This document shows, one piece after another, positions 41,401-64,000 of a stretch of DNA of 64,000 bases. Source of the stretch: Pisolithus tinctorius (taxonomy: Eukaryota > Basidiomycota > Agaricomycetes > Boletales > Pisolithaceae); NCBI GenBank assembly GCA_024663395.1, contig JANFAH010000028.1, positions 1 to 64,000 of the forward strand, given 5' to 3'. Within the stretch, counting starts at the first letter, position 1. Every line of letters starts with the position of its first letter. The notes beneath the pieces were generated by a model, which made no database searches, was not told the DNA's origin, and saw only the letters and a program-made list of their open reading frames with translations. Made by a program: the position numbers and the translations under genes.

Positions 41401-42140
41401 CGAGAGCCCATTCCGAACGAGTTCTTGCAGGTAAGCAATGTTGTACGGTGTCACTACACAGAGACATTAGCGACAACCCCACCACCATCTGTCGATACGT
41501 GCCTCGTTCAGGGTCGTAGGACTCATGCCTATACTTATGGAAACACCAGCTTCGTCCAGTTCCAAGTTTGGGTCACCTGTGATGACCGTGCGGGTGGAGA
41601 AGTCCACCCATCAGGTTACCACATAGACGTCCTTCTTTGCCCTTTAGCCATATCCGGACGGCTTTCACAGGTCGGCCTGAGTTCTGGAGGGCTTGAGGGG
41701 TACCAGTAACATCATTATCCATGTAGGTTGAAACTACCAGGAGGGATGAGTGGATAGGGAAAGAATACAATGCGATACTTGCCTGCAACAGCTGTTCAAA
41801 CTCCGTTACGACGGGAGCAGGTGCACCTTCCTACTCACACTGTCGAACGCTGGCAGAGGCCATAGTGATGTCACCCAACTTGTATGTCAGATCATCTTCA
41901 CTCGTCATGACACCACCATCAACAGCTCTACTCGGGCGGACAGGTGGAGGCAGTACTGGCAATACGGTGATGGTCATCCACTCCGGTCTTGCATACTCGT
42001 CTGAGAGACTTGAAGTAACTAGAAACCAGAATTCGATATTTTCTTGAATGTTGTGTACACCTCCGACGGCGTGCACAGGCGTTTGTCAGGTTGCAACGAC
42101 TTGATGTCCTACAAAGCGTTAATATCTTGATGCCCTTCGT
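38480..42140 (-). pseudogene. rpb1: RNA polymerase II largest subunit (RPB1) fragment, decayed
   Basis: On the minus strand the text follows RPB1 in order. CTPSEVYTTFKK lies near 42075, then EWMTITVLPVLPPPVRPS and [47 protein letters not shown], the active-site region, [21 protein letters not shown], and EILYGIVDKK follow. Next come VEGKRISFGFRYQTL and trigger-loop-like [12 protein letters not shown]. The last parts are [44 protein letters not shown] and [11 protein letters not shown]. The metal-binding NADFDGD is altered to DAGFGGD. Stops and frameshifts are many. One 53-nt GT-AG intron is still present (41054-41106), so this is a DNA copy, not a retrocopy. It starts inside the clamp region and ends just before the heptad tail. 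The cell must have a working RPB1 elsewhere. Confidence 0.9.
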
Positions 42141-42488
42141 CGGTTCTGAGTACCGCGAGATGCGAAGGACGGTCGCAAGCAGTTCGGAGAGGGACTACTC
42201 GTGTGAGGTAGAGATATGTTTGCTGGCGCCATGACCGGGTTCTGAGGAGATGTAGCGGGAGTGTCGATAACGCATTACTCTCGTATTAGACGCATGCCGG
42301 CGGGCTACATGACCAATTTTCCCACTCGACCCAATCACGCGGATAGCGAGGCAATATGATAGAACAGATGGCAGAGCACAATTACAAGACAGACCAAGCA
42401 GCAGCCAGGAAATAAAGAACTTGCAACTGCCAGTGCGCCGTAGTAACTACTACTTCGAAGTTAGTACTAGTGTTGATAGGGTGAATTT

Positions 42489-45400: not shown

Positions 45401-46530
45401 GCTCCAGCTTGCATCCAGGCTCCGGTGCTTGCTTTTGAAGCGCTGCATGGGCATTGATCCAACTGTCCGAAGTGTATAATTCACCAAACGCTTGCTGAAC
45501 TTTGCCAGTGACGGGATCATGCCAGATTTGTTCAAATGGCCATAGATGGAATGTTTTAGCTTGGATATCATTGAACGCTGAACGTATAACCTCAACGAGA
45601 GATCGATAATGAAAACCTGGTACCGAGTATTTCTGACTGCTCCCCTGATTTGTCTTCATCCTGGTGGGCACCTCGATATCCATGGAAGAAACCTTCCAGT
45701 TGTCCGGAAACACTACCTCGGAGTTCCCAGAACTCTCACCTGGAGCATGGTCCTCGTCGAGGAGTCGAAGATGTCTATTAGATGAAAAACCATGCAAGTC
45801 CACAGAATTGAAATCCTCCGCTAATAGCACGGCCTGGACGAGCCTCGTGACTTCGCCCTCGGACTTATGCTTGCTGCCCGTATTCATCCATTGCATCAGG
45901 CGATATATGGTCATGTTCGCGAATGGGTAAGGAGGAGGAGGGAGGTGAGGCTGAGGAACAATGTGCACACCCTTTTGTAAAAGGGGACATACTTTGGCCA
46001 GTAGCATAGATGAGACAAAGGAGTCAGGCTCGAAGGATGGGCAGTGGAGGTACCGGCGACATATGCCAAAGAAGTCTCTTTCTGATTGAAAACTCCCATG
46101 TACGTGGAGTATCACCCTGCGAATAATGCCTGCTCGATTTCCTGATGCAAAATCTCGATTCTGCAGAGGTGTAGTAGATGGAGGCGAAGGCGCACGATTG
46201 TGACGATCTTGAATTAGGCTATGGGGAAGTTGGCCCTCGGCTACAAACAGGAACCATGATATCAAAGTGCATCCATGGACAATTCCTATGGCACTTACCA
46301 CTGGCAGGTCGTGTGTCAACATGCATATTCGAATCTTCAGTTTGCATATCATTGCTCTCGTCCTCATCAACACAGGGATGTGGACTTGGAATACGAAGCT
46401 GGGTGTGATCTGATACACTGGCAAGGGTAGCAGTGGTTCCGTGGTCGTCGTTCGGTATCACACCAGCCTGGTCCTGAAGTAAAGGTGAGTACTGCAGTGG
46501 CGGTTCATGAAGTGGTCGAACGGTCACCAC
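42489..46530 (-). mobile_element. Plavaka-type DNA transposon transposase, multi-exon
   Basis: The pieces from 46424 down follow the Plavaka transposase (CACTA-related, common in Agaricomycetes): FANMTIYRLMQWMNTGSKHK, VPGFHYRSLVEVIRSAF, CKLERVIAGLMFFSDATHLA, LYLYFGNVSKYARAMP (46424-45195), then LTMLVVDLMHECELG and LLYGLPTGALTVAELDAR (45034-44417). IRKFSSNTLEMKRLAARDFE, FRFAEWHVLAKLRLH and YKFHALGDYVESIRLFGTT follow (44427-43774). The C-terminal part has RIRYTTYDM and SFLDPNIAIRAVHLIPAF (43378-42881), and an acidic tail DRDMFMHFAGRSPGH..DDE (42773-42489). Introns of normal size separate the parts. A TGA at 42881-42883 stands where CGA is expected, just before the EEDGWVNFYVN block. This copy is therefore probably inactive. 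Terminal inverted repeats were not found. Confidence 0.85.
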
Positions 46531-47839
46531 TTACCAGGTCTTGAAGTCCACTGCTGCGCCCAGTAAATTTCCCGAGCGCGGTACTTGACTGCCTCACCGT
46601 GTATCGCAGAGCAGCATCTACCCTTTTCACTCTTTCATGACGCTTCAAAATGGCAAGACTTGTGGACTTCCGGTATGATGAACAGAGCAGCCGATGTTTT
46701 GAGAGTGAGCATTGATTGTCAAAAGTTCAGCTGCATGAAGGTCCACAGAAGAGCGTGACCATGAGAGTATGAAAAGACAATAATGCTGGATTGTAATGGC
46801 CACCGGAATGGCGGCGATCATGGCAGCAAGATATGATGGGGTCATTGAGCTGTGTTAGAGGTAACAAAACAATCACTACAACCGGGGTTCTTTCGGTGAG
46901 GCTAGGAGCCCTAGCATTAGGTTTCGGTAGGCCGTCAATGCCCGGCAGTGACATTAGTTGGGGGATTTGAGATTTCATACCCGAATCACGTATTGACAGG
47001 CACGAGCCTGAAAAAATTCGTTATAACGCAGGCTAAATGAGATCGGGACGTTCCAAGCTGAACATACCTCTCCTTTCCATCCTTGAAGCCTCCGTAGCCT
47101 GCAAGGTGATTTTCTTCATGTTAGATCGTGGTGGTGCATGAATCTGATAGCAGAATACGTTCTCAAAGAACAACTTGGGAATCTTGATCCCAGGCAGAGA
47201 GACGTACTGGGTGAGACAAGTGTTGGTGGATCACTGAAGATAACGGTCACAGTTTATCAACATCTCTAGAGTAAAGATACTCACCGATTTTTGCGTACGC
47301 AGGCGTGGGTGAAGACCAAACCTGGCACCTACCCGAATCCCGTGGGCCTGCAAGTCTGCCAGCCATGAACAGTAAGTATACTCAGAGTGACAGCAAACTC
47401 CAGCAGGACATAAGAAGCTTAGGATGCAATTCTAGCTCCTTCGTAATAGGTGTGTCCCCTCGTGTTTCCTCGTATTTGTATTAGTTAACTGGTTTTGGAT
47501 AGATTCCAAACGTGAACACACCCCAACTCCGCCACCTTGTGGGCAGCCTCCAGCACTTCAGGAGCTGCCACAGCATTGTACAAGTCGAATGATCACCATA
47601 CCCATCCACATTGTACAGGAACTCATTCGAGCGAGGTGGGCTGCTGAGATAGCAAAGTGTGAAGCGGAGCAGAAGTTACAAGTGCTACAGATGGTACATG
47701 GTAAATGGAGGAAGTATACTTGAGGCAGGTCCTAGCGATGCAGCTCCTTGTATGCGACAAACAAGAAAAACGAAGTACAACTGGTCACAAACAATACAAG
47801 TAAACCACATAGATGCGCATTGTTTATTACCAGCCCTAT
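46531..47839. other. Upstream of the transposase, no clear gene
   Basis: On the minus strand a readable stretch SSYRKSTSLAILKRHERVKR lies near 46660 and may be a 5' exon of the transposase. Otherwise I see only short frames on both strands. Composition is normal. Confidence 0.4.
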
Positions 47840-48407
47840 TCAGCATTTTGTCAATGCAACCTGCAGCGGTTTCATATTGAGCTCTTGGTCGGGTTCACAT
47901 ATGGTCTTGAGATACCGTTTCGCTTCGTCAAATCTATGAGACCACTCCTGTACTTCTGCCTTGCACATGTAAGTGCATGCCTCGTACTGGCGAAGGCGGT
48001 GTTCTGCAGCCTGCAGTTGTGTGCCAATCGTCGCAACAGCTTGTTCTGCCACATTACGTATGTGTTTTTGACGAGCAGTGCTGGGGCCTTTCAGGTTGAG
48101 CTATTTGATAGATTAAGTTTTATTCCACAGGAAGAGAACTGCGACGCACCAGGTTTATAATGGCATTGTCAGTAGAGGTCCCTGAGCCGTATCTCTCTGG
48201 TACAGCTAGTGCACCGTGCCAAGATAAGTTTGGAGCATCCGAAGTGGACCGAAGTTCAGGCTTCCTGCCATATTCCGACTGTTGAGTGGAAGTCATTGTC
48301 GCAAAAGTTGAACAAGAATTGGCATCGTATGATGGTTGTAATAGATAATGAGGATCTAAACTCCGACTTCGGACTTTTCCTTGTGAAACTTTTTCAGTCA
48401 TGCGCAA
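47840..48407 (-). CDS. Hypothetical protein, two exons, charged helix
   Basis: An upstream frame (48407-48120) reads SEYGRKPELRSTSDAPNLSW, then AVPERYGSGTSTDNAIINLV. A second frame (about 48095-47840) reads ARQKHIRNVAEQAVATIGTQ and continues with a helix-prone, charged stretch that includes EWSHRFDEAKRYLKTI before a stop. The gap between them could be a GT-AG intron starting near 48126, but I could not fix the acceptor phase. No family is recognised. It ends about 250 bp downstream of the dsc1 stop codon, on the same strand. Confidence 0.35.
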
Positions 48408-48658
48408 GTCATGATAGATATGGTTTATAGATTAGATTAAAACTTCCACTAACTGGCTGGAACATTCAATGACCTACCCCAAATCCGCCACCTCACAGCA
48501 AGACTAGTAGCAAGCACCTCGCGCAAAATTTAGGACACAGGATGCTAGTTCTACATAATCAATAACGGTGACATTGCGCAGTACAAGTTACATACGCGGT
48601 AAAGGCTTGCTGGACTACGACAGCGGTACTCGAGAGGCGCCTCCCCGACATTATGATA

Positions 48659-51570
48659 TTACAAGGGCGGTAGCGGCCTGCGACATTGTGGGCATATATT
48701 CTAGGTGATATTTCAGTTTCCGTCGTGTGTGCGATGACACGAGACTATGCCTACTTTGAGAGCAAGCCACTGTATCAGATGATGGAAACATCGCAAAGTT
48801 AGAAAACAAAATGGAGGACCTCGCACAACATACCTTCTCAAGACATTCCGTGTGCTGTAGGATTGTGCTGAGCACTAAGTACCACAACCATCAGTGGAAT
48901 CGAACTCACAAAAATATGGTGACACGGGGCCACACTATAACCCTTCTTGATGCCTACCTTTTGCAGCAGCCCGCCAGTAACCTGCTGCAATTGTTTTGAG
49001 TCCTTGACATGGATTACCTCCATGCAAATGGAGCAGTCGCCAAGCGGCTGGTCCAGTGCCTCGGGGTCGTGCATATTTAATGGCATTGGTGGATGGTAGT
49101 CATATATTTGTGCCGTAGCGAACTATATAAAAAGATGACAAGTCAACTACGGAGGAAAAAGCAGTGCGTTCGGGAATGAGGACACAAACCCGTTTCGGCA
49201 GAAAGAATGCGGGGCCAAGGAACTTCTGTAGGAGAACCACACCAACTTGGAACAGAATGAACGCAGCGAGGGAGTATACCCATCCTGTAGAGACGGTTAG
49301 ACCAGGCGCGGCGCTCAGGATGACACTTACGTCGTGGCTCTACATCCAATACATTCGTCGAATTTGCCAAAAAATCTGTAGCTTTGTTAGATCCAGCAAG
49401 GCAAACGAAAAACCGACTGACAGAAAGGGAACCACAACCTGCATATTGACATGCCAACGAGGTACTCGGCACTCAACGAACTGCTCCTCCCACACTTGAC
49501 GGAGCGAACGATTTGTGGTAGCCAAAATAACGAATACATAGATCTGACGAAAAAAGAGCCAGTAAAGGCGACACGATTGCGCGGACAACGAATGCGAGAC
49601 AGATAAGTAATCCAATCCCTTGGTACAGTCAGCCAAAAAAGTAACAAGTAATGGTCAGCCTACGTACAAATGCGTGCCTGTGGATCTGAATACAAATTTC
49701 GGGCGAAAGCGCCCAGGAAGGAACGGGTTGTGAGCGGAGGGGGTGTTTGAGGACGTTGTGCTGGCTGGGCAGTTTCAGCGCCTGGTCCATTGTCCTGTGG
49801 AGCTTGCTGTGGAGGTCTCAGTGGGGGTATGGTAGTATCGAGTGCATCTCCTGGGGCCTGGACTTGGTTGACAAGGGTTGCATGGTGCTATAGAGAGACG
49901 TCAAACACGGCAACAGAAGCAGCGTAAAAGATATACCGCTTCTATGGAAAAAATTATAGAGGAGGCGAAAGCTGGGATAATCAACGCGAGCGAGGGCCTT
50001 CCATGTGCCAAGATAGCAAAAGTGATGTGTGCAGCGAGAGAAACCGTGTCGACGATGGCCTGGGTGTAGAAAGTCCAGACCGACAGACGTTGAAGAGCAG
50101 CAGGACTATGTGTACGGTCAACGTGGCGACATAATAGAGTGAGCATTATGAGGGAAATGACTCCTGAAATGCTCCCATCTGTACCATTGCCAATGAGAAC
50201 GAATCTCCTTGTACGGAATAAGGCAACCTACAGTTAACGACTCTTCGGAGAAATGACTGAGTTCTATGAGAGGGTTGAATGATTAACGAATAACAAACAA
50301 GAAGCATCTCCGCTAACCTTAGTCCCTCGGCGTGATAGAACCGATAGAGTACGCCACATTCTCTACTCAGCAAGACACCGTTGACGCGAAGGGGGAAAAC
50401 ATTCGGTGTCCATTTTCCCGTTGGCGATTGTAGCTCGCTTTCAACGTCAATCATAAGTTCTTCAGAGATCGGGGACGGTTCAATCTGAGCATATACTAAG
50501 AATCCGCAATCACTCTGAACTCCACTGTTGGCTATCACATCATGAATGGAGTCCAAGGACAAGATGCTCCACACCGACCTTCCGAAGACTCTTGGTCAAC
50601 GACCCCATTATCTATCATGGTCTTGATTTTGTCTATCCGTGATTGAAGTTCATTTTGCACGACACGAGTAGTTTCATTTTGTGACTCCTCTGGTACGATT
50701 GCTGGGAGGTACCTGATGTTGATATGACGTCTGAAAGCCTATAAGCCAATGGAAGTGCCAATATGACGACGAAAGACTAATTACCCGGGAGGTTCAGCAA
50801 AGCCATATACCGAACCATTGGCTATGAAATGGACACCCTCAAAATCAAGCCTCATCTCGTTACTGCTTGTCGCATCGACAAAATCAATTCTTCCCTAGAT
50901 AGTGCATCCTCAGACAGATGGACCAGAGGTAGCATGGTGGAATTATCGCACATGAGCCATTGCCAGCTTGTCTGACACACCTTCTACAACTGCATGGTCG
51001 ATGACACTCCATGCCATTTTTCGTGTTGCTTTCCAATCCTGCGTGCCCAAGGAGTTTAAAATCTCCGTCATGTTCGTGTTTGCCATATAGGATTCAGCGT
51101 GCGATGACCAAGGAGCCTGGGCGTCATTCAGGCTCGGAAGCATGACGTTGTGAAAGTCAATCTCCCTGCGGATGAACCCAGTTATATTTGGAAAGTATGA
51201 AGCACTAGATGGGTCCAAACGAGACCCGAGTGTCATGTATGACTCGACGAGAGGCCGAAGTGAGGGATTTCGATCGGGCTGATTGTGCCAAGGTTTGAAC
51301 GTTAACCTCGACTCGACGACTAAGGTGCGCACGTACCATGGAAAAGTTGGTATCGGATCCGTTCATCCAGCTCGTGAAATTGGATAGCTGGTAAGTAAGA
51401 GAGCATAACGCATCGTAGTGATGACTCCGAGCCAAGAACTCGTCTCCGCTATGATTCGTGAGCAAGAAAAGCATAAAGATAATAAGAACAAAGGATGGAA
51501 TGGAGCTCCTCTGCTGCAGCTGCGGCCTCATCGCAGTCTGCACATTCTCGGCTTCATCGTCACGGTCCAT
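48659..51570 (-). CDS. dsc1: Dsc1/Tul1-like membrane RING E3 ubiquitin ligase
   Basis: I assemble 14 exons: 51570-51337, 51278-50952, 50894-50785, 50730-50579, 50531-50299, 50227-49937, 49887-49668, 49618-49422, 49375-49331, 49284-49190, 49122-48910, 48854-48834, 48769-48755 and 48700-48659. The product is about 731 residues. It has a signal-anchor helix SIPSFVLIIFMLFLL, a luminal domain (ESYMTLGSRLDPSSASYFPN, FEGVHFIANGSVYGFAEPPG), several membrane helices (TQAIVDTVSLAAHITFAIL, FWLPQIVRSV), and a C-terminal RING-H2: CSICMEVI ... CHHIF, HTECLEKW, ICPQCRRPLPPL. The family is the catalytic subunit of the Golgi/endosome Dsc E3 complex, which drives membrane-protein turnover and, in fission yeast, SREBP cleavage. 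One T seems to be missing in a run of six at 49550-49555. Everything else is in frame, so I suspect a sequence error, though a true mutation is possible. Confidence 0.88.
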
Positions 51571-51688
51571 GGCATGAAAGCGATTGAAGCTCGGCACTGC
51601 GTCGCTCGCTGAGCAGTGTGCCGGGGCAGCACGTGACTTCCCTTCAAGGCAATCTACACGGTCGCGAAGTTGAGGTCGACCACAAATC
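51571..51688. promoter_or_regulatory. Divergent promoter between dsc1 and nnf1-like gene
   Basis: Only 118 bp separate the two start codons, which point away from each other. The two genes must share this short promoter space, or their promoters overlap the first exon of the neighbour. I see no TATA box. Confidence 0.6.
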
Positions 51689-52493
51689 ATGGCAAAAGGA
51701 ACACAAGACACAAAAAGATGGACACATTTTCACTCTGCGTTGCAACTGGCGATACACAGAGCAGCACACAAGTGGGCATAAGTCATGACCAATCTTCTCT
51801 GTCTGTCTGTCTAACCGCGGGAAGATACGAAGATTTCCAGGAGTGCTTCGCGCTGTGGTGCAAAGAAGAACCACATGGGGCGGAGGGAATATTTAACATC
51901 ATATCATGGCACATGGAAGACCAAGTGCCTGTCAGTACATCGAGCATTTCTATTTCGAGAGACTTAAATTGTGCTCCAGGCAAGCTGTGAACGGTTGTTC
52001 AAGGATTACAGCGTCAGAGAGAACATCAACACGCTACACGCAGTAGTCACAGAGGCACGAGCCGGAAAACAACGTGCAGAAGTCGACAGGAAGGATTTAT
52101 GGAAAGAGGATTTGGATCCTCGGGGTGCAGTACGTGCCCATATGGTCCCAGTATTGCAGGCAGAAAGAGAAAGATTGAAAGAGACACTGCACCAGGCAAG
52201 CATCGAGGCTATGTCCCGTGGCTCTTCTGTCTGACGCTAAGTGGCAGCTCGAGGAAGAGAACATTGTCCTATATGAGGAGACTGTGAAGAATGCACAGAG
52301 CGATCGCAAAGCTAAGGAACGAATACAAGAACTATTGAAGCATGCGGACGAGGTACTTCGATCTTGCCATCCATATATTTCATACTGAGCCGTCTTTCAG
52401 GTTTACTCCAGATGGAATAACATTCCCCATGATGAGATAGGGTTATGGAGTCTGCAGGTGGCAGAGAACTCAGCGACTAATCGACCTCCCTAG
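51689..52493 (+). CDS. nnf1: Nnf1-like kinetochore protein (MIND complex)
   Basis: The five exons 51689-51771, 51825-51930, 51980-52195, 52242-52352 and 52401-52493 join in phase to 609 nt (202 residues), the usual size of Nnf1/PMF1. Key text is KRWTHFHSALQLAIHRAAHK, YEDFQECFALWCKEEPHGAE, CERLFKDYSVRENINTLHAV, WKEDLDPRGAVRAHMVPVLQ and the C-terminal YSRWNNIPHDEIGLWSLQVA. Most of it is predicted coiled coil. Nnf1 is one of four MIND/Mis12 complex subunits linking centromere chromatin to Ndc80. Intron 3 (52196-52241) begins GC rather than GT, a rare but known type. The family call rests on remembered motif order and could be wrong; the gene model itself is strong. Confidence 0.65.
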
Positions 52494-53012
52494 TGGTATA
52501 ATTGAAGTATCTCTATTGCCAAGCTTGCAACTCACTTGCGTCTATCAACGATAGAAATGCACGGTGGCAGGAGGCAAGTTTCATAGTAGCACTCCCATAA
52601 CGTGTAGTCTACGGCGCACTCTCTACCAATAGCATCCATTGTCCGTTGTGTAAAGTTAGTGTCCTAGTCCGATGAGTACTAATGGCATTGTAAGTACTCT
52701 ACGCTAAAGTCCGTAGCAAGGCCCGAAAAGGAAGGAGTTTCAGTGGTGAGTTGGTTCCCACGCAATTATGACCCTGGTAGAGACCTTGCAAGCAAGGTAA
52801 TACCATACTTGTTCTGGAGTCAAGAAATGCATAGAACCAACTGAATTACTACTACTTATACCAACAACAGATTCATTGAGAAAACCCACATGAATTTCCC
52901 CGCTCGATGTCCCAAAGGTGATCGAATCTCCATCTATAGCGAGAGTAGAGATGGACGACTGAGGAATCGGGGTCGATGCGAGTCGGTTCTTTTTCGTCGG
53001 GTCTCCAGATAC
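52494..53012. other. No recognisable gene
   Basis: This is the space between the 3' ends of two convergent genes. Nothing recognisable is present. Confidence 0.5.
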
Positions 53013-54483
53013 CTAGCTAACCCAGTGAAGAATGGATTGCCGCATTCGGTCAGATGAGCTCGCTGCCCTCTCTGCGCTAACAACACCATTATGGTTATCC
53101 CTGCTCGCCTGACGTTCGGATTGTAATGGCCGGGGAAGGGTCAGGGGACTCTCCTCAAGGGAAATAGGAATGAATGAGCAACGTGGATAATGGTAGTCCC
53201 GCTGATTCTCATGAGTAGAGGGTAAGAGGACAGGCAGGGAGCACTCGGATGGAGTGGCTACCTGCGTATCTGGGATAGTAACATCGGTGCATGAGGATCT
53301 CCAGCTGCCAAATGAAACCCATGAATTCAATCGCAAAGATAACAGTGAGGACATCGACGTCAGTGACTCAGACGACGGGGGGGGAGGGTATGGGTGCTGA
53401 GTCACGGACGACGGACTGCGAAGATTTGCAACACGTCTGCAAGGTACGCCAGCGGCTTGCGCCTTCCATCGGTCGCCTTTCCACTCCACAGGTTGCAATA
53501 GATTGTCCAGCAACTGGGTATGCGCTGACAGTCTGCATCGATGTCGTGTGTTATTGGATAACGAGTCCAGTCCAACGGTACACCGAGCATCCTCGACTTG
53601 CTCAGGTGCGTCCGGAGGGAAGAGCCTGCCCTTCATACACTTGACGACCTCCTTGAAACACACCGTGGGTCTCGGTGAATCGGTGGCGGCCTGTTTACCT
53701 GCCGTTCTAGGAGATCGAATGACTTGCCAGGTGGAGGTTGGGCCGGAGGGGTTGGTGGGTACCATGAAGCTGTATTGAAATGGGGTTTCTTCTCGTGTAG
53801 GGTTTGAGTAAGAATATCTCTCGGCACGAGCCTGAAACACCGAACTGTCAACAAAAATTCAGAGTAGAGCTTCCAAACTCGCACCCTTGAGTAACATTGT
53901 TGTCTCTGTGCAGCGTGTCTCCGCTCGTTCTCTGTTTGCATTGGGTCCCCTCCATGGGTCTCCCATCTGCTTCCTCAAGGGTGAGGGGACCAGAAGGAAC
54001 AAAGTAAACATCGAAGTCCTCGTTGCAGACCTCGTCGATCCTAGGGTCGTCATCAGAGCCTGTGACTTCGATGCCTTTGAGTTTGAGGAGAAGTGTCTTG
54101 GCGAGTCGTATGTCATCCAATGCGTAAGCTACCTGAACCTGGTCCTCGAGTTTGGTGGGTGGCGATGGTGTCGAGTCATAAAGGTCGGAGGAAAGGGAAG
54201 CCGAGGAAGACGAGTCAGATGAGTGGGCGGCCGAACTATCCAGCATGGGAGACGGTGACCGTTCGAATACAATCGAGGGGGAAGAGGGGAGGGGAATGGT
54301 GATGGATGACTCAATGGCAGTGGGATGAGCTAGCGCACACGCGTCACCCGCAGCGCTCGAGGATGGAACCAATTCCGATTGAAAAAGGAGACTGTTGGCG
54401 ATTGCATCCGGTAGGGAGGAGGGTTGCGGCTGCTGCTGTTGGTGTTGCTCAAGTAGATGAGCTCTCCTTTCTTCGGAAACCAC
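53013..54483 (-). CDS. Conserved Agaricomycete protein, unknown function
   Basis: The upstream part (54483-53925) is Ser/Pro-rich and then shows the family signature DDIRLAKTLLLKLKGIEVT, DDDPRIDEV and EDFDVYFVPSGP. Shortly after, QTENERRHAAQRQQCYSRVR continues in another frame near 53940. The downstream part (53840-53013) has QYSFMVPTNPSGPTS, CFKEVVKCMKGRLFPPDAPE and LNSWVSFGSWRSS. This order is typical of a widespread Agaricomycete protein of unknown function. The start is uncertain because the upstream frame opens just after a stop at about 54486, so a further 5' exon (perhaps 54608, MSGCDANEYLARFHAIPLAF) is likely. The frame changes near 53945 and 53845 could be short introns or damage. 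Confidence 0.5.
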
Positions 54484-54766
54484 TCACCAATGCAATGAAC
54501 ACGATCAGGAGAAGTGAACTGTTGTTGTCGAGTAGCACAAGCCTGCCAAAAAGCGAGAGGAATGGCGTGAAAACGAGCGAGATACTCATTTGCATCACAG
54601 CCACTCATTCCTTATCAGGTCTTTGGTGATGACACAGTTAGATGTCAGATCTTATCCTCAGCTTGCATCACAGATTTACAGGGTTGCATCAGACATAAAA
54701 TCTAGTGTAAGTGATGGTCATCTCACTACTGATTAGCCTCTCAGTGACCTAGGAAGTATATACACC

Positions 54767-57669
54767 ATGGAACAACAACAATACAACAGTGGTGGGGAAT
54801 CACTGATCACTGATCAGTCTTTACAGAGTGATCAGGGTACAGTGGACCAGGGGCAAGTGTACTATGGTGGGTTCCTTCATTCATTTGGCTAACTTGGCTA
54901 ATCCTCCATGGCTAGGCCAACAGGATATGAATGCTGGGTTCATATCTGGAGAACAGCATTTCCATGAGTCTGGTAAGCAAGATTTATTCATTCATCTAGA
55001 TGATTTGATTGATTCTCCACTACCAGGGCAATATCAAGGCAACAGTGGGGATCTACTATATTCCTCTGAGTCTGGTAAGCAGGATTTTTTCATCCATTTG
55101 ATTGATTTGGTTGATTCACCCCTACCAGGGCAATATCAAGACAATAGTGGGGGTCTACTATATTCCTCTGAGTCTGGTAAGCAGGGTTGTTTCATTCATT
55201 TGATTGATTTGGTTGATTGTCCCCTACCAGGGCAATATCAAGACAACAGTGGGAGTCTACCATATTCTTCTGGGTTTGGTAAGTAATATTTTTTAATTCA
55301 TTTGATTGATTTGGCTGATTGTCCCCTACCAGGGCAATATCAAGACAACAGTGGGGGTCTACCATATTCTTCTGGGTTTGGTAAGCAATATTTTTTTGTT
55401 CATTTGATTGATTTGGTTGATTGTCCCCTACCAGGGCAATATCAAGACAACAGTGGGGGTCTACTATATCCCTCTGAATCTGGTAAGCATTTTTTTTTCC
55501 ATTCATACAGAAGTTTAATTGATTTGGTCCTACCAGGGCAAAATCAGGAAAACAGTGGGGGGTTACTATATTACTCTGAGTCTGGTAAGTGAGATTTTTT
55601 CATTTAGAAGTTTAGTTTGGTTGATTCTCCCCTACCAGGACAATATCAGGACAATGGGGGTCTACCATATTACTCTGAGTCTGGTAAGTAATATTTTTCA
55701 TTCATTTAGAAGTTTAATTGACTTGGTTGATTCTCCCCTGCCAGGCCCATACCAAACTCAACCCAGTTCTGGAGGAGGTATCTATCATCATGATTGTAAG
55801 TCCATCACTTTCATGTACTTTTGGGTAATTCAGCTAATCTCATTGAATAGCCCAATTCCAAGGCCCTGGTGTCCCTAGTTCAGGGGGTATGTGAAAGTGT
55901 CCCCTTCATTTGCATTTTGACTGAGGCTCACCATTGGTACATTTATAGAGTCTGGTCTTCAAAGGATCATGTCTATGACTCTTCCCCCAACCCTTGAAGA
56001 TGTCTCTCGCTGGTTGTCAACTGAGGGCCATGACAACCAGTACATCATGGATGGTCAGTCCAACCATCCAGAGAATATTTCAGGGGAGTATCCACTGGGT
56101 TTTTACCCTCCATTTCACATGGTCCCTGGTGATTCAGGCACTCAGCATACTGGTAAGTCAAGAACCATCAGATTCTATACAAAGTAAATGTTGACCAGCT
56201 ATTGCAGGAGAGAGCACAGAGGAGACAGGAGGGTGGAAAAAGAATGAGGGGGAAGCAGGGTGGACTTTTCACCCTCCTCCCCCAGGTTCATGTAAGTCAA
56301 CTTCAGTTATACCTACAATTGTCAACTCAACTGAAATTCCTTTTCAGATGTGGATCATGACACCTTGAAAAGTAAGTCAATCTCACAGTGAAATCAATAT
56401 ATTTTCATGACCATTGGATTTAGATATTTATGTGCCAGTCCCATATGAAGGTGAATACATACCCCCACAGGGTGTGATAGATGACCAGACATGGGCACAA
56501 CTCACTGGGGCCCCACATTGGAAAAGTAAGTATAAGTTGTTTCTTGAACTTTTTTCTAACTATTTGCAGTTCTCATGGGAGATAGACTGGTTACTGGCAC
56601 CACTCCCTTAATTTCCTTTGCCCAGCCAGCTGAGGCAAGGGATCACCCCCATTCTAGGCGTAATTTGAATTGGCCAAATTCAGAGAAGTTTGGAAGTGCA
56701 AAGCGGCATGCTGAGCAGCAGTTTTCCAGTCAACTGTTACTGGCAGGGATTGACATCCCAAAAGGTGAACAAACAGCCATGGCCCATGCTGTTTTAGAAA
56801 GGACAGTCCAAATTTACCAGCTTCCAAGAGGACTCACTTGTAAGTTCTACATTGATCTCTCAGCAATCAGCCTCTGACCTTCTATGTACTTGTAGCAGTG
56901 CATGGTAGTGAACAGGTAATACACTGTGGCATATATGGATTCTTACTGATGAGTGATTTAGTTTGCTGATGTTCTTTTTGACCACTTGCGTGGTAACATC
57001 AGGTCACTCTTTCGAGTGGCATCTGTAGACTTTGGTATCACAACCCAATTACCTCCAAGAAAAGGGCAGGATCCCAGGGTTCAAGTGGCACCAAATTGTG
57101 AAGAGCATATTAGGAATGTTGCTGCAGAGCCATATGCATGGTGTCACAGAACTTTCAATGGTCCTACAGTGAGTGACATACCAGTTCTTACCAGAGGGCT
57201 CATGCTGACATGATCTGATAGGGACCAATCTGTGTAAAGTTCATTGACCTTCGCATTGATTTATATTTTGTCAAGGTTCTCCTATGGCTCCCAGAGTTAA
57301 CCCTTATCTGGCTTGCCAATAGCCTGACTGATTTTGAATCATTCACAATTCCCATTAGGCTTATCAGCCATGTAGTCTATTCTGTGAGTATCTATCCTAC
57401 ACTATTCCATGCCTGGGACAAGGACTAACACTGTAATCACATAGCTTCAATGGGCCCTGGAATTGGACATGGACAAGGGAAATAATTTGAAACATTACAT
57501 GTCCAAACGTGGGAATAGTGCAGTTGACAGAGGCAACTCAGATAGTGAAGCAGCCATTCTAGAAAGGTATGCAGACCTGGAGCTGGGGATTGGTGATGCA
57601 TTCCTTGATCATCAATGGGCATTGATGAACAAGACACGTTGGTATCAAGTTATGAAACAAATTCAGTAA
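54767..57669 (+). CDS. 20-exon gene with tandem micro-exons; DUF6532-like
   Basis: The start is at 54767 (MEQQQYNSGGESLITDQSLQ). Exons are 54767-54866, 54916-54972, six of exactly 48 nt (55027, 55129, 55231, 55333, 55435 and 55537 as starts), 55639-55683, 55745-55795, 55851-55886, 55949-56152, 56208-56291, 56348-56371, 56424-56525, 56570-56839, 56896-56915, 56962-57168, 57276-57383 and 57445-57669. They add up to 1,821 nt (606 residues) with no frame error. The first 16 introns are all phase 1. The N-terminal third repeats a 16-residue QYQDNSGGLLYSSES-G unit rich in Q, N, G, S and Y. The C-terminal half includes WAQLTGAPHWK, AHAVLERTVQIYQLPRGL, HLRGNIRSLFRVASVDFGI and FESFTIPIRLISHVVYSLQ. It resembles the layout of the fungal DUF6532 family, but I am unsure. 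Residual CpG is confined almost wholly to exons, which argues for selection. Confidence 0.75.
54973..55683 (+). repeat. 102-bp tandem repeat, seven units, each intron + exon
   Basis: Units start at 54973, 55075, 55177, 55279, 55381, 55483 and 55585. Each is 54 nt of GT-AG intron (start GTAAG, end ACCAG) plus a 48-nt exon; the last exon is 45 nt. The exact 102-bp spacing shows that the intron and exon were copied together. Confidence 0.95.
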
Positions 57670-58646
57670 GTTACTTTACACTCTAACATTTTGGTAGCTT
57701 CATGTATTTTCTAGGAATGCACTTTGTCCTGTCTGATTGGTTCAAATGCCACTTTGATGATAGTTACAGGCTCATGTAAATTTGTATTCAGAATTGCTGT
57801 CCAGGGCTCATGTTCTGCAGCCCCATAAACATACAGCAGTAAATGTTACTTCATATTGTCCACAGATGACTACTGTCACTACATGAAGGTCTATCTTATT
57901 GGAGTTGTGCACACAAGCTCCCTCACATCAAGTCCAGCAGTTCTGATTTGGACCCTGCTTGTTCAGCTTGACAGTCATCTCTGCCATTCAATGGTCATCT
58001 AGCAACCCCAACTGGTCCTCATCCTTTAAAGCCAAACATGTTAGATTATGAGTTAAACATATACCCCAAATAATAATATGTATGAGACTTATGTCCACTG
58101 CCCTGACATGTAGTTGAAGAAGTTGTTACAGAGGCATGGTTGATAGAGGGCACACCATGAGAGGATGTGGAAAGGATTGAGTATGTGCATGCACAAGGGA
58201 GGATATCATTGTGAGTACCAGTGATGTTACCAGTGATGATCAACACACTAGACAATGAGGACCCATCATCTGCTGTATCCTCTCCCTCTGTCTCCATCAC
58301 ACTTGTCTGTGGTATGACATTTTGCACAGGCTCAACATCCACCATGTTGACAACCACTCAGCCCCTCCTGCAGATGGGTGTTGACTTGGGTCTCCTGGCT
58401 TTCCCAGTCATGACACTACATTCATTACTGATATGCCCTTTCATGCAGATGTTTGGATCCTCTCCTGGGGTGTGATATCTCACCCATTTGGATGCCAGAT
58501 CTCTTGATTTTTTGGAGTCATATACTACTCAAATAGGGCTTTCAAAAGCTGTATTGTATGCTACAGTAGATGTGGAGCTCATTCAAATACCACATCTTGT
58601 GGTTCAAGGATCAGACAATTTCACAGGTATTTCAGGATTGAGTCCT
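57670..58646. other. CpG-free DNA, no gene recognised
   Basis: Short open frames on both strands, among them an acidic Ser/Thr-rich one on the minus strand (58357-58046). None has a known motif. Confidence 0.5.
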
Positions 58647-58802
58647 CAGGAAAAAGGGGACTTTGCTACAGGTGGTTTTTTGGCTTTTTTTAGCCCTTTT
58701 TTTGCCATTTTTCAGTTATAAAGTGAAAAAGGATGACAAAAAGTGCAGAAAGACAATAAGAAGCCAAAAAAAAACACCTATAGCAAAGTCCCCTTTTCCT
58801 GA
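58647..58802. mobile_element. MITE-like element with about 40-bp inverted ends
   Basis: The left end (58647-58686) starts CAGGAAAAAGGGGACTTTGC. Read in reverse complement, the right end (58762-58802) starts TCAGGAAAAGGGGACTTTGC and continues with the same order of G/T-rich words to TTTTGGCTT. The whole unit is about 156 bp with no coding capacity. No clear target-site duplication was seen. Confidence 0.8.
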
Positions 58803-61039
58803 TGGGATTCCTCCTCACTCCTTTTGTGCTGTGTTTGTCCTGCTTTCCTTCTCCATCTCTCCTGGTTTCATTCTGTTTTGAGTGCCCATCAATAATTAAC
58901 AGTCTCCTCCCCCTCATGACTAATCTGTGCTGTGTCTCACCCATCTCACCACCAGGGCTCTCACTTCTCAGGGATGAGATACTACTCTATGAGAGCTTTC
59001 AAATGATGTGTTGTATGTCTGTCTAGATATGTTCTACCATCTCCATGAACTCTGTTGATTGCCCCAGCCATTGCCATTTGAGAAATTCACCTCTCCCTGC
59101 CCTTGAAGATTTAGGGTTGTATCTTGCATGTCCCTGCACCATTTCTCTCACTTTTCCTGCCATACATTCCACTAGTTGAACCCTCTCTGGGGACAACTTA
59201 GGTGTCCAATTCTGTGCAACAGTAGTCTGAGCCACTTTTGCATATAACTCAGGATCAGGTGATCTGATGTAGGGAAGACAAGGTCTTCACCTACAATATG
59301 TCCAAGTTGGCCCCTTTTTTTCTTTTCTTTTTGTTTTGCATTTTTGTTCTCTGCCTCTGGACTTAGCATTGAGCAGCTGCATTGCTAACTAAGCAAGATC
59401 ACTACACTCAAAGGATGACTGGAGTGAACAAGTGCAAACAACAATGACAAAACTGGATGTCAATCACAGGCTGTGAGAGTCCAGGATTGTAATTCAATGG
59501 AGATGAGGCATGACAGGTGCAGATGCTGAGCTCAAGAGCTCAAAGGTTTGTTTTGTTTTAGAACATTTTACTTACAACTACATTATTCTAGGGGAAACAG
59601 CTGTTTGCAATGAAGTATGACCAACACCTGAGCTGTTATGACATGAGAATCTACAACAATGTACAAGGAGAAGACCCTCCCACTGGCAGCCAAAATCAAA
59701 GGTAACATTGCTTTTATTGAGCAAATGATGTCCAAGCTTGAACTGCAGCTTACTCACTGTGTATTGCAATCACTCATTGCACTCAGGAAATACATCAATG
59801 GTAAGGTCCTGCAAGATCCCATGGAAAGAAACTACCCAGAAGACTCAGACATGAAGGCAGAACTACTTTCCTGGCTGCCCTGGATGTGTTTAGGCCCTTA
59901 GAGCCCAACAGCCCAAGTTCTTGTTCTTGTTTCATGACTTTTTACTTATGGTTGTGTTATTCTAGAGTAGCCAATGACATTGAAGAAGGAATGCATCAAT
60001 ATACAGCATGACAAGTACAACACCCACAAAATGCCAGAAGAGAAGAGTTCAAAGTGACTCTATGAACTTGCATGCAAATTGTCAAACACCTGGCAAGAGG
60101 AGATGCCATCTCCATGTTGGATATCATACAGAGACACCATGATGTTGTGTGGAGCAGGTATCTGCTACCTAGTAAGGGGATGTAGGCTCCAGCCTAGGGA
60201 TAGGCAATCTGAAGGGGTGAGTTTGACCCAAGGGGAGTTGCTCTAGCAGTAGGAGGGTGATAGGGAACAAATGCAACCAAGTTGTGCATGTTGCTCAACC
60301 TGTAAATTAAAAGGACAGTGGATTATGGGGCAGACAGGCCTCAAGCCAGCCTAGAAAAGTGTCAGAAATATGCCTGTGACTCAGTGCTAGGCAGGCAAAA
60401 GGAAAGGGGTCATCTCAACATCATTATTCTGCTTGCTCTCTCTGTCTCTAACCTGGGGGCTTCAAAATTGTTATTTTTCCTGTTGATGAAGACAGGTATA
60501 AGTGTAGCTACATGCAGAGTATGTAACTATGAACTAAGTGACATCAAAAGTGAAAAGAGCAACAAGAAAGAATGGTAATTAGTTGAGATCAATGTAATAA
60601 TGGCCATGAGGCCAGTTTGGCATCAGCAATCAAAGGAGTGGCTATAGCAAGGGAAGTGCAAGGAAGCACAAGTGGTCCAAAGGGATGTGAACAAGAATAC
60701 AGTGAGAGTGACAGAAACACACTTACATAACTGATAGTGCAGAGCCAAAAAGCACAAGTGAGCAAGTGCAGGTGGCCTGAAAGCAGTTGCAAGTGTTGGA
60801 ACTTCATCACAATGGTCAAGGGGAGTGTCTAGTGGTCATGTGATGGCAGGAGAAGTGATTTGACCAAAAAGGGTGGAGTATTGGGTGACCTGGAGCACAG
60901 AGGGTGTTAAAGATGCTTGGGAGTGGTTGCATTTGCATTGCTTTTATTGCAGAGCCTATAGACACTTAGTAGACCTCCAATTGACACTATACACACACTC
61001 CTATTGTAGGGAGATCACTCTCCCCACAATGTCCTGTTT
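58803..61039. other. CpG-free DNA, no gene recognised
   Basis: An 80-codon open frame at 59659-59901 (KGNIAFIEQMMSKLELQLTH) could be a decayed exon, but I do not recognise it. Other frames are short. Confidence 0.45.
59266..59393. repeat. Dispersed repeat, copy 1
   Basis: This copy is similar to 62353-62474 in the same orientation. Shared words are ACAAGGTCTTCACCTA, TTTTGTTTTGCATTTT, CTGCCTCTGGACTT and CTAAGCA. Confidence 0.8.
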
Positions 61040-61660
61040 TGTATGGGAGATATCACAGATGAATGGGATGTGTTGGATGTATTGAAAGAGTCAGGCACCA
61101 CATGTATTGTACAGACTGCCTCACCACAGGACAGCACAGAAGACCCCTCCATCTACTACAAGGTCAACATCAAAGGCACCCAAGCCATCACAGCTGGAGT
61201 CCATAGACTGATCTACAAGACATTCAGGCCTGGAGACTGCCAAGTGATGGCCAGCCTATACCAAGCATATCAATGCAGCCAAACCCACATCCAGATTGAT
61301 GACAACAACAATCTGTTTGATTATAACAATGTCAGGAATGCCACACAAGTCCACCTACTCACAGTGGACAAACTCATTCCTCCTCCCTCTCACTCCTCTA
61401 CCATGTTGGGTAAACCCAAACTATACCCTGAAAGTGCTAGGGTAGAACTCAACAAGTCCCTACACTGCACTCCCACTCCCATATATGCCACTACTGAATA
61501 TCATCACATGCCACACAGCTCCACACAACCACTCAGTCCCTATGTCACACCCCCACCCAATGTCAAATCCATCCTATCCATGTTCAACACTCCATTCAAC
61601 CCACATGAACTCAGTGCACCATCATTCATTCTTGAGCCAATGGACAAATATTCTTAATCA
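61040..61660 (+). pseudogene. ERG26-like sterol C4-carboxylate 3-dehydrogenase relic
   Basis: The frame reads GDITDEWDVLDVLKESGTTC, QTASPQDSTEDPSIYYKVN, IKGTQAITAG. It then jumps straight to RPGDCQVMASLYQAYQCSQT and IQIDDNNNLFDYNNVRNATQ, with HLLTVDKLIPPP and later SPYVTPPPN. That is the order of the NAD-dependent ERG26/3-beta-HSD family of sterol synthesis. The N-terminal nucleotide-binding loop is missing. So is the central stretch with the catalytic Tyr-x-x-x-Lys, because RLIYKT joins the RPGD region directly. Residues that are usually Arg or Gly appear as Cys, Gln, Ser or Asp, as expected if CGN codons lost their CpG. It is a dead partial copy of a host gene. Confidence 0.7.
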
Positions 61661-62086
61661 TGACTCTACAGACTTATGCACAAGAGCAAACACATTTACA
61701 ACCACATTGGAAACCTTCAAAACTGTGAGGGGACACACAACATGCACAGGACATCAGAGCTGCACAGAAATTGGGCATATTAGTCTTTCAGCTTACTTCA
61801 TAAAAGGCCAATGCCCAGTGTGCCAGCACTGCACTGTGCTAGTACCCTGTCACCATTTTGCACCATGTACTGCATTTTGAAAGGTGAACTCCCCCCCTTG
61901 CTTCATACTTGATTCATCACCAACTTGCTTACTTGTCCAGAGTTACCTCCATCATTGTCCAGTTCAAAGGTTGTCTTGGTGGTTGTGGGAGGTTGAGGTC
62001 ATGTGTTCAAGGTGAAAAAGGTGGCTGGGTGTTTGTGCATGGTCAGGGGCACATTAGGAAGGGTGATGGCATGGTTCATGAGATCA

Positions 62087-62120
62087 TGCATGTGTGTGTG
62101 TGTGTGTATGTGTGTGTGTG
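62087..62120. repeat. (TG)n microsatellite
   Basis: An interrupted run of TG dinucleotides, broken once by TATG near 62108. Confidence 0.9.
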
Positions 62121-62352
62121 AGGTCAGCAGTGTGTTTTGCAAGAGGAAGGAGTTGTGCCTTAGACAGTTGTTGGTTGAGTGCAAAGGGTACATTGCAAAG
62201 TCAAGGACATGCATAGGGTCAAGAGAGTGTTAGTGAGGACAGGTGGGATGTTCAGGAGTGGGGAGTTGAGGGGTGAAGGGTGTGTTTGTGAAGCCAAGGA
62301 TGTCTGCACAAGGAGAGAGGATGGCTAAAGACAGTTGTGATCTAAACCCCCT

Positions 62353-62474
62353 TGGATGTAGGGATAACAAGGTCTTCACCTATGAGAAGTCCAAGTTCTT
62401 TCTTTTCTTTTTGTTTTGCATTTTCATTCTGTGCCTCTGGACTTGGCACTGAGCAGCCACATTGCTGACTAAGC
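62353..62474. repeat. Dispersed repeat, copy 2
   Basis: Partner of 59266-59393, same orientation, about 3.1 kb apart. Confidence 0.8.
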
Positions 62475-63110
62475 ATGGGTGCCATGTTCATGTGAGTTCT
62501 GCTTACTATACTCATGTACAGACATCACTATGGGGTATAGTGGAGGAGCATGGAGTTGCAAAGGATAGTATATTTATAGTGGAACTACTTTCTTTGATAT
62601 GATTGATGAATCAATGAAATACTATTACATATGCCAGCATACTCATAACCTCAAAGCTATCATCAGGTCTGGCAGTATACATGGATACAGCTTTGCAATG
62701 TTATATAAAGCCATCACAATGGTGAACCCAAGTATGGCCAATGGAAAATCAAGGAATATCAAGGTATAAGGCCAGTAGTGATGACTGGCCATTGATCAAA
62801 TGAAGAGGCTTACATGCAGTTTGGGTTGGAATGATGTCCAAGCCTTCAGTCTCTGTAACTTGAAGGTGTTCAGAAGGATACCTCTACAGCACTATAAGGT
62901 GTTTGGTGGTTTGCCTTCCAGTTGTAGGCATGCACCTGGCTGGTAGCAGCATTGAGTCTGCTTACATAAACATGTAATGTGTACATAGAGATACTTCAAT
63001 TTTTTCTCAATCCCTCATACTGTAGCTTGTTCACTACTAGCTATCCTTCAAATGTAGGTAGGCAGAGACATGTGGAAACCTGGTAAGCCAGTGCCATGGA
63101 ATATACATGT

Positions 63111-64000
63111 TGTCATGACCGTGCATTCGTCATAGGTCCTTACTCACTCCGCAACCTTTTCCGCCGGTCATTCGCTTACTCCGCACCAACTCCGCCCACC
63201 CTCTATCGTCTACGAACCATCTCCGCTCCGACTGTTGTCGGACTTGTGTTTCTCTTCTACCGGACCGAGCGGTCCGTTCTCTGAGGGGTCATGTGACTAC
63301 CTGCGCAGTCAGGTACTCCGCAGCGCGCACGCCGCATGGTCCAGCGTCTGGACTGTTTCCTTTTCTGGGTGTTCTATGTTACCCGCTCGTATGTCCTCCG
63401 TCTACCCTTCATTCGTCGTCTAGGAAGTTTTTACTTGAAAATTTCTGGGTCTCTGTATGTCAGTTCCGATTCTGGTTACTGTACCTCTGTAACAGTATAA
63501 AAGCATGTATCGTACTCTGCCATTCTTCAGTACGAATATCAACTTAGTTCCTACTCCTCCTGACTCCGTCTTCTGTCTGTTGGACTTACCTCCGACACTC
63601 CGTCTGTACTCTCCCTCTGAAATACGAGGGCTGAGATTGTGCAAGGGGGTAGCGCACGAGCTAAACCCGACGCCCTCACTCTGCTCCGCCTCTGTCTCGG
63701 CGGACTTCGTTCCTGCCACCACTCCGCTAGTCGGAGTTTCGTTCTTCCCTGTCGGACTTGCTTCCGAACCACTCTCTAGACCTTATATAGCGTCGGAGTT
63801 GGTCGGAGTAGGCCCGGACTTGACAGTATATTCATACTCGCACTTGTACGATCTCATTTTCTGTCCTCCGAAAAACTTACATCATTATGAGAACTCGAGC
63901 TCAATCCCAGAGAGAGGTCACTGAGAACCTCGCTGCAGCGCTAGCTAATCCGTGTCGACTCCCTTCCGTCGTCGAACAATTCCAGTCCTTCTCCACTCGA
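63111..64000 (+). mobile_element. 5' end of an LTR retrotransposon, runs off the window
   Basis: At about 63108-63111 the DNA changes from CpG-free to CpG-rich and begins TGTCATGACCG. It is rich in CTCCG words, has a TATA-like TATAAAAG at 63496-63503, and after about 775 bp reaches an ATG at 63887. From there an open frame starts MRTRAQSQREVTENLAAALA and continues to the window end, which looks like the start of a gag. The most likely reading is an LTR followed by a very short leader. The right LTR is outside the window, so this is an inference. Confidence 0.6.
63887..64000 (+). CDS. Putative gag start, partial
   Basis: The open frame runs from ATG 63887 to the window end, 38 codons, hydrophilic with a basic start. 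It follows the putative LTR. It is too short to assign to a gag family. Confidence 0.4.
   Translation, partial: MRTRAQSQREVTENLAAALANPCRLPSVVEQFQSFSTR

What the first reader, a model, noticed from the sequence alone, without database searches (positions are those of the whole stretch)
54973..55683. A 102-bp minisatellite that is an exon plus an intron
Seven units of 102 bp each hold a 54-nt GT-AG intron and a 48-nt phase-1 exon (45 nt in the last). Every added unit adds 16 residues and a new intron without disturbing the frame. The introns are also a multiple of three, and the first ones are open in frame (through text such as HLIDLVDSPLP). Retaining them would give a 34-residue repeat instead of a 16-residue one. 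This is a compact way to create length variants by unit number, exon skipping or intron retention.
Basis: partly seen in the sequence, partly recalled or inferred. Interest (0 to 1): 0.85.

Follow-up and report, generated by a model that had tools for sequence, protein, structure and literature searches.

The report
Transposon gene with exon-intron minisatellite
In a mushroom that lives on tree roots, a large jumping DNA element carries a gene whose first part is made of a short exon-plus-intron unit repeated seven times, and other copies of the element have four to eight units, so the predicted protein grows or shrinks in whole 16-residue steps.

Summary
In detail: seven 102-bp units, each a 54-nt GT-AG intron plus a 48-nt phase-1 exon (45 nt in the last). 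The genome is Pisolithus tinctorius; the annotated protein (BKA82DRAFT_4362269) implies the same junctions. The array is the N-terminal part of a 21-exon gene (54767-57736, 630 aa, no Pfam match). The gene is not a single-copy host gene. It rides on a repeated ~29-kb element with exact ends CATCA...TGATG, 2-bp target duplications in 3 of 7 two-ended copies and a Plavaka transposase domain: close to the published description of PlavakaB DNA transposons. Copies carry 4, 6, 7 or 8 units; hybrid units show in-register recombination that leaves exon length and frame intact. The gene lies in a CpG-free block where the 8 surviving CpGs are all Arg codons, so the frame was under selection while CpGs decayed. 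Length variation by unit number is therefore shown between element copies. Retention of introns as coding sequence is not supported: stops and 1-nt indels occur in introns as chance predicts. Exon skipping is untested. Exon-intron repeat arrays are known elsewhere (Tetrahymena LRR genes); I found none described inside a DNA transposon's gene. The protein's function is unknown; I infer an element accessory protein.

The parts
34590..63110 (.). PlavakaB-type DNA transposon (about 29.2 kb in all); left terminus CATCATGTCC at 34590; the last 700 bp and the right terminus ...GTACTGATG lie outside the window at C28:71211-71910, behind a nested LTR-like element
   Evidence: Left terminus exact at 8 places (6 different left flanks), right terminus exact at 11 places (8 different right flanks) and at one more with 1 mismatch; Plavaka domain inside; termini as published for PlavakaB
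45195..46454 (-). open frame with Plavaka transposase domain (PF18759)
   Evidence: hmmscan E 9.6e-16, 58.3 bits, cut-off 26.3
54579..63119 (.). CpG-poor block of the element with only 8 CpGs, all in the array gene
54767..57736 (+). array gene, 21 exons, 630 aa, BKA82DRAFT_4362269 (hypothetical protein)
   Evidence: the protein of the exon chain is identical to P0001 up to residue 624; last intron 57666-57714 and exon 57715-57736 inferred from P0001
54867..54915 (+). intron 1, 49 nt, diverged copy of the unit intron
   Evidence: local score 38, 0 of 300 shuffles reach it
54973..55683 (+). exon-intron minisatellite: 7 units of 54-nt intron + 48-nt exon (last 45 nt)
55684..55744 (+). 61-nt intron 9, diverged copy of the unit intron
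   Evidence: local score 79, 0 of 300 shuffles reach it
56208..57736 (+). exons 13-21 encoding the conserved C-terminal part (about residues 260-630), 39% identical to a Paxillus rubicundulus protein
34621..35483 (.). 289-bp x 3 tandem repeat just inside the left terminus
63111..64000 (.). start of an 8.1-kb LTR-like element nested in this copy (second LTR-like stretch at C28:70497-71211)

Best explanation
The array is the N-terminal part of a spliced gene carried by a ~29-kb PlavakaB-type DNA transposon in Pisolithus tinctorius. The unit is one symmetric phase-1 exon plus its short intron, so gain or loss of whole units by recombination or slippage between registers changes the protein by 16 residues and disturbs neither the frame nor the splice sites, wherever the breakpoint falls. 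The protein (a G/Q/Y/N/S-rich repeat followed by a conserved part without a known domain) is most likely an accessory protein of the transposon. Shown: the array, a public protein with this spliced frame, the element with both termini, unit-number differences between copies, hybrid units, past selection on the frame. Inferred: that the RNA is spliced this way, that the repeat is a flexible multivalent region, and that the protein serves the element.
For: Array and gene model; public protein identical through residue 624. Element: right terminus identical to the base in 11 copies with 8 different flanks, left terminus at 8 places with 6 different flanks, 2-bp target duplications in C1, C7 and C38, Plavaka domain, published PlavakaB termini 5'-CATCA..TGATG-3' and 2-3 bp duplications. 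Gene bound to the element: the 40 matches of the Paxillus homologue in the genome lie on 11 contigs at the places of the array gene and nowhere else (37 of 37 candidates scored); 10 of these 11 have at least one element end, C51 has none. Unit number: 7 in C28, C1, C7, C55, C30; 8 in C118, C18; 6 in C38, C4; 4 in C51 (and P0003). Hybrids: C38/C4 have one unit with a b-type intron start and c-type end and exon; C51 has in addition a b/e hybrid exon of 48 nt. Frame: the 8 CpGs left in the block of the window copy are all first positions of Arg CGN codons, about 1.7e-10 if drawn at random from the block's CG/TG/CA sites; over the post-array part of all 11 copies 59 of 59 CpGs are at codon position 1 and none is intronic or silent. 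A homologue in Paxillus at 39% identity has tandem repeats of its own in front of the shared part.
Against: No RNA evidence was available. Between copies pN/pS is 0.87 over all pairs of 11 copies (post-array part), near neutral, and 4 of 11 copies have TGA at the CGA codon 57013, so many copies are decaying; C30 and C157 have lost all eight Arg CpGs. Unit exons are hardly more conserved than unit introns (0.873 against 0.864 identity). Target duplications are absent in 4 of the 7 two-ended copies (C4, C18, C118, C28). No domain or usable structure for the protein. The transposase could belong to a younger insert, as it lies in the CpG-normal middle of the element.
Confidence: 0.78

Rival explanations
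1. The gene is a host gene captured by the transposon (as the element also holds Rpb1 and 3-beta-HSD fragments), so the array says nothing about transposition and is carried as cargo.
For: Fragments of Rpb1 (PF04992/PF04998) and 3Beta_HSD (PF01073) lie in the same element.
Against: Apart from C51 (no ends found) and diverged relics on C2, no copy outside element copies was found in the genome; the frame was kept by selection through long CpG decay, unlike a dead fragment.
Confidence: 0.25
2. The array is like the amphioxus 'mirages': a minisatellite over exon-intron boundaries that splicing normally removes as a single intron, so the repeat is not translated.
For: All donors and acceptors are phase 1, so one big splice from 54973 to 55744 would also keep the frame. 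Mirages vary in unit number in the same way.
Against: None of 66 parsed unit exons changed length while 7 of 66 introns did; nonsynonymous to synonymous ratio between the six 48-nt units 0.56; each intron has a GTAAG donor and CCAG acceptor and a size usual for fungi (recalled); the annotated Pisolithus orientalis protein also keeps repeats.
Confidence: 0.08
3. Length and retention variants are regulated: exon skipping or intron retention gives 16- and 34-residue repeat isoforms on purpose.
For: Fifteen consecutive symmetric 1-1 exons (exons 2-16); 42 of the 56 48-nt-unit introns parsed are open and a multiple of three.
Against: Openness is what descent from an open ancestor predicts (4 of 18 with stops, 2.6 expected); 1-nt intron indels are tolerated.
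Confidence: 0.08
4. All copies are dying repeats; the gene model is a relic and the array now evolves as plain repetitive DNA.
For: pN/pS 0.87 and TGA at 57013 in 4 of 11 copies; CpG-poor block.
Against: C28, C1 and C7 have an intact frame, and C55, C18 and C38 show no premature stop either (there with one array exon misaligned); C28, C1, C7 and C38 keep all eight Arg CpGs.
Confidence: 0.2

Closest known systems
Tetrahymena 90-bp-exon LRR genes (PMC6564038; abstract and passages seen)
   Same: Uniform symmetric exons with matching introns as tandem repeat units; unit number varies, attributed to unequal crossing over; units lie next to retrotransposons.
   Different: Phase 2 introns, ~347-bp units in T. 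thermophila, leucine-rich repeats, many genes of a ciliate; here 102-bp units, phase 1, no LRR family match, inside a fungal DNA transposon.
Amphioxus 'mirages' (PMC3087553; abstract and passages seen)
   Same: Minisatellites spanning exon-intron boundaries, with different unit numbers between haplotypes.
   Different: There the repeats do not disturb regular splicing and cover one boundary; here each unit is a whole exon plus a whole intron and is predicted to be translated.
Internal tandem repeats in human segmental-duplication paralogues (PMC2812944; abstract and passages seen)
   Same: Minisatellite unit number differs between recent paralogues and changes exon and intron structure.
   Different: The passages describe units within exons or the making of new introns; arrays of complete exon-intron units are not described in them.
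PlavakaB DNA transposons (PMC12730594; abstract and passages seen)
   Same: Termini CATCA..TGATG, 2-3 bp target duplications, Plavaka transposase.
   Different: No gene of this kind is mentioned in the passages seen; no Tet_JBP match listed lies inside this copy.
TnpA of the maize Spm/En CACTA element (recalled; only a search listing seen)
   Same: An intron-rich second gene of a related transposon group (recalled).
   Different: No sequence comparison made; no subterminal motifs shared by the two ends were found here.

Membership tests
PlavakaB DNA transposon | Plavaka transposase domain inside the element | tested here: met
   PF18759, E 9.6e-16 at window 45195-46454 minus
PlavakaB DNA transposon | termini 5'-CATCA..TGATG-3' | tested here: met
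   left CATCA exact at 8 places, right TGATG exact at 11 places and one with 1 mismatch; 0 matches of the reversed control patterns; definition
PlavakaB DNA transposon | 2-3 bp target-site duplication | tested here: inconclusive
   2-bp duplication in 3 of 7 two-ended copies (C1 ac, C7 ta, C38 ga); not in C4, C18, C118, C28; C28 has mixed flanks
PlavakaB DNA transposon | transposase groups with PlavakaB in a tree | not tested
   no reference transposases were fetched
Tetrahymena-type exon-array gene | tandem units of equal symmetric exon plus intron with variable unit number | tested here: met
   (likeness in working, not descent)
Tetrahymena-type exon-array gene | exons encode leucine-rich repeats with phase 2 introns | tested here: not met
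   phase 1 introns, no Pfam family at E<=1
amphioxus-type mirage | array does not alter the spliced mRNA | not testable with these tools
   no RNA; evolutionary evidence points the other way
schistosome micro-exon gene (features recalled; only a listing seen) | secreted protein, most of the coding sequence in symmetric micro-exons | not tested
   exons 2-16 are symmetric but include exons of 102-270 nt; secretion not examined with a tool

The most novel reading that the evidence does not exclude
The exon-intron minisatellite is a length dial on a transposon's own accessory protein: unit number (and perhaps skipping of any of fifteen symmetric exons) sets the valency of a flexible G/Q/Y/N/S-rich region that helps the element act in a methylated genome, and its CpG-free coding block reflects that long contest.
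Probability: 0.12. Interest if true: 0.8.

Novelty: new variant of a known kind. Interest (0 to 1): 0.55.

Why it matters
It is a clean natural series (4, 6, 7, 8 units in one genome) of how a protein repeat grows by exon-intron units without frame or splice damage, down to hybrid units that show the breakpoints. That it sits in a dispersed transposon gives many copies of known relatedness, so unit turnover can be timed and the effect of repeat length on transposon activity could be tested. The CpG pattern also gives an RNA-free way to show past selection on a reading frame.

Tried and rejected
Structure prediction of P0001 with four relatives gave mean pLDDT 29.1 and was not used; no structural search was run on it. 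Pfam, solved structures (one hit at E 0.73) and a profile search of 5.8 billion proteins gave no relatives beyond the five already found. The idea that the whole repeated block is an ordinary segmental duplication was dropped when base-exact termini appeared. Helitron- or LINE-like ends were considered by eye and dropped. An inverted match of the right end elsewhere in the window was sought and not found beyond chance-like scores. Subterminal motifs shared by the two ends, as a TnpA-like protein would need, were not above shuffles. A Tet_JBP gene in this copy was looked for and not listed, although the genome has at least 150 matches (150 of 186 candidates scored). In one search a multiple alignment misplaced gaps inside the array for six of nine copies; array counts are therefore taken, and selection counts from the part after the array. 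One search missed one unit of C4 (5 listed; 6) and the interrupted last unit of C51; the parser skipped the 45-nt units and one unit of C4. One search lists one spurious 65-nt intron in 9 of the 10 array copies (dropped), a shortened first intron in C118 and C18, and misses one unit of C4 and the last of C51.

Searches bearing on novelty in print: (listings and abstract starts only); seen in part (abstract and passages): PMC6564038, PMC2812944, PMC3087553, PMC12730594. None of these showed an exon-intron array in a transposon gene; the library lacks most subscription journals, so this is a weak negative.

Full report
What was checked. Tandem Repeats Finder gives 54965-55707, period 102, 7.3 copies, score 941. 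The units are seven 54-nt GT-AG introns and seven exons, six of 48 nt and one of 45 nt, all phase 1. The exon peptides are GQYQGNSGDLLYSSES, GQYQDNSGGLLYSSES, GQYQDNSGSLPYSSGF, GQYQDNSGGLPYSSGF, GQYQDNSGGLLYPSES, GQNQENSGGLLYYSES and a 15-residue last one. The intron before the array (49 nt) and the one after it (61 nt) are diverged relatives of the unit intron (0 of 300 shuffles each), so the array once reached further and its edges have aged. Exons 2, 10 and 11 are not significantly like a unit.

The gene. Joining the exons from ATG 54767 gives a 20-exon, 624-residue model in which the first sixteen introns are all phase 1 and exons 2 to 16 are all multiples of three. A protein search returned the same protein, annotated as hypothetical protein BKA82DRAFT_4362269 of Pisolithus tinctorius on a contig of 843,343 bases, which is the length of the window's contig C28. 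Its sequence is identical to the model through residue 624 and adds NALCPV, which implies a last intron. It is an independent prediction; whether RNA supports it is not known to me. No Pfam family matches at E up to 1. Two more P. tinctorius records (contig lengths equal to C30 and C51) and one Pisolithus orientalis protein (F5J12DRAFT_779148) are the close relatives; a Paxillus rubicundulus protein (PAXRUDRAFT_12955) is 39% identical over residues 260-630 and carries its own 11-residue tandem repeats of the type HHSTGWVPEES in front of that part (seen by eye).

Copies and unit numbers. The array recurs at many places in the 92.5-Mb assembly. Reading them unit by unit gives 7 units in C28, C1, C7, C55 and C30, 8 in C118 and C18, 6 in C38 and C4, and 4 in C51, whose last unit is interrupted by an insertion (P0003); C157 is cut by a contig end. 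The annotated P. orientalis protein shows four clear units plus a fifth read in another frame (by eye). Over 66 parsed unit instances no exon departs from 48 or 45 nt, while 7 introns are 53 or 55 nt (two of these are shared by C18 and C118, so five events). The six-unit array of C38 and C4 has a hybrid unit that begins as unit b and ends as unit c; C51 has the same hybrid intron and, in addition, a b/e hybrid exon, still 48 nt. Exchange between registers therefore keeps the frame and both splice sites whether the breakpoint is in an intron or an exon.

Why there are many copies. Eleven copies end at the same base on the right...GTACTGATG, with eight different flanks. In the window the last 700 bp are separated by an 8.1-kb LTR-like element inserted at 63111. 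The left end is CATCATGTCC at window 34590, found first in C28, C4 and C118 with differing flanks. A genome scan finds the left end exactly at 8 places (six different flanks) and the right end at 12 (11 exact, one on C2 with a mismatch); the reversed control patterns match nowhere; seven contigs have both ends. A 2-bp target duplication is present in C1, C7 and C38 and absent in C4, C18, C118 and C28. Inside lies an open frame with a Plavaka transposase domain, E 9.6e-16. A 2025 paper states that PlavakaB families have termini 5'-CATCA..TGATG-3' and 2 or 3 bp duplications (PMC12730594, passages). I had found the termini before I read this. The element is thus best read as a PlavakaB transposon of about 29.2 kb (34590-63110 plus 700 bp), and the array gene is one of its genes. 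The Paxillus homologue, used as a query, matches the genome on 11 contigs, each time at the array gene; two diverged relics lie on C2. Ten of the 11 have at least one element end; C51 has none.

Selection. The window is sharply divided into CpG-normal and CpG-poor stretches. The right part of the element, 54579-63119, has only eight CpGs and all eight are the first two positions of Arg CGN codons in exons 12 to 20; none is synonymous, intronic or intergenic. Drawn at random from the CG, TG and CA sites of the block this has a chance of about 1.7e-10 (sites treated as exchangeable). Over the part of the gene after the array in all 11 copies, 59 of 59 CpGs are at codon position 1, at these eight sites and one more Arg site, 57369. 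Elsewhere in their blocks some copies have a few further CpGs that I did not classify. So the reading frame was protected while unprotected CpGs turned into TpG or CpA, whose excess is visible in most CpG-poor kilobases. Each of the eight sites is lost in 3 to 6 of the other copies, and 14 of the 49 variable coding sites fall on them; at 57013, CGA has become TGA in C30, C118, C4 and C157, 4 of 11 copies. C28, C1, C7 and C38 keep all eight, C30 and C157 none. Between copies pN/pS is 0.87, between the six 48-nt units of the window 0.56. The picture is a gene kept by selection over the long life of the family, with single copies decaying freely after they land, which is what one expects of a transposon gene.

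Intron retention. The array introns are a multiple of three because they are copies of one another; no other intron of the model is. Of 18 distinct 54-nt introns 4 contain an in-frame stop, where random mutation of an open ancestor predicts 2.6. One-base indels are tolerated. A shuffled intron of this composition is open in 33% of cases, so an open ancestor needs no explanation.

What is known. Arrays of equal symmetric exons and introns that change in number by unequal crossing over are described for the 90-bp-exon LRR genes of Tetrahymena (PMC6564038, passages), minisatellites over exon-intron boundaries for amphioxus (PMC3087553, passages), and variable internal repeats for human duplicated genes (PMC2812944, passages). 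The present case works like the first and differs from it in phase, size, protein, kind of organism and above all location, in a DNA transposon. I rate it a new variant of a known kind. What the protein does is open: the structure prediction failed (pLDDT 29.1), no listed Tet_JBP match lies inside this copy, and no motif shared by the two element ends stood out from shuffles.

Changes made on the second check: the count of copies that keep all eight CpGs (C38 added), the 59-of-59 count (new), the copies without premature stop, the flank counts and the control wording.

Noticed in passing
window 9355-17035, 24103-27084, 34576-36242, 54579-63119: CpG is almost absent (observed/expected near 0) in these stretches with sharp edges and about 0.5-1.1 elsewhere; TpG/CpA is mostly raised there. 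Two of them are the two ends of the transposon, while its middle (36243-54578) is CpG-normal, as if the middle were acquired later.
   Followed up: partly
   Followed up: partly
window 39033-39581 (-) and 61010-61654 (+): Fragments with Rpb1 (PF04992, PF04998) and 3-beta-HSD (PF01073) domains inside the transposon look like captured host genes.
   Followed up: no
window 57013 and seven other Arg codons: Each CpG kept in the window copy is lost in 3 to 6 of ten other copies; C18 and C118, which share both flanks, differ in whether 57013 is a stop.
   Followed up: partly
window 54527-54592: A 59-66 bp motif on the boundary of the CpG-poor block occurs at 27 or more other places (40 of 107 candidates scored), at 16 of them with a second copy about 160 bp away; on the reverse strand it reads LARFHAIPLAFWQACATRQQQ.
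   Followed up: no
window 25817-26694: A 129-bp tandem repeat, 6.8 copies, 89% matches, lies in another CpG-poor stretch.
   Followed up: no
whole assembly G000: 150 Tet_JBP domain matches listed, all but one above the Pfam cut-off (150 of 186 candidates scored): a large expansion of 5mC-oxidase-like genes in this fungus.
   Followed up: no
P0005 residues 1-85: The Paxillus homologue has its own, different N-terminal tandem repeats in front of the shared part, so repeat growth there may be a habit of the family.
   Followed up: partly
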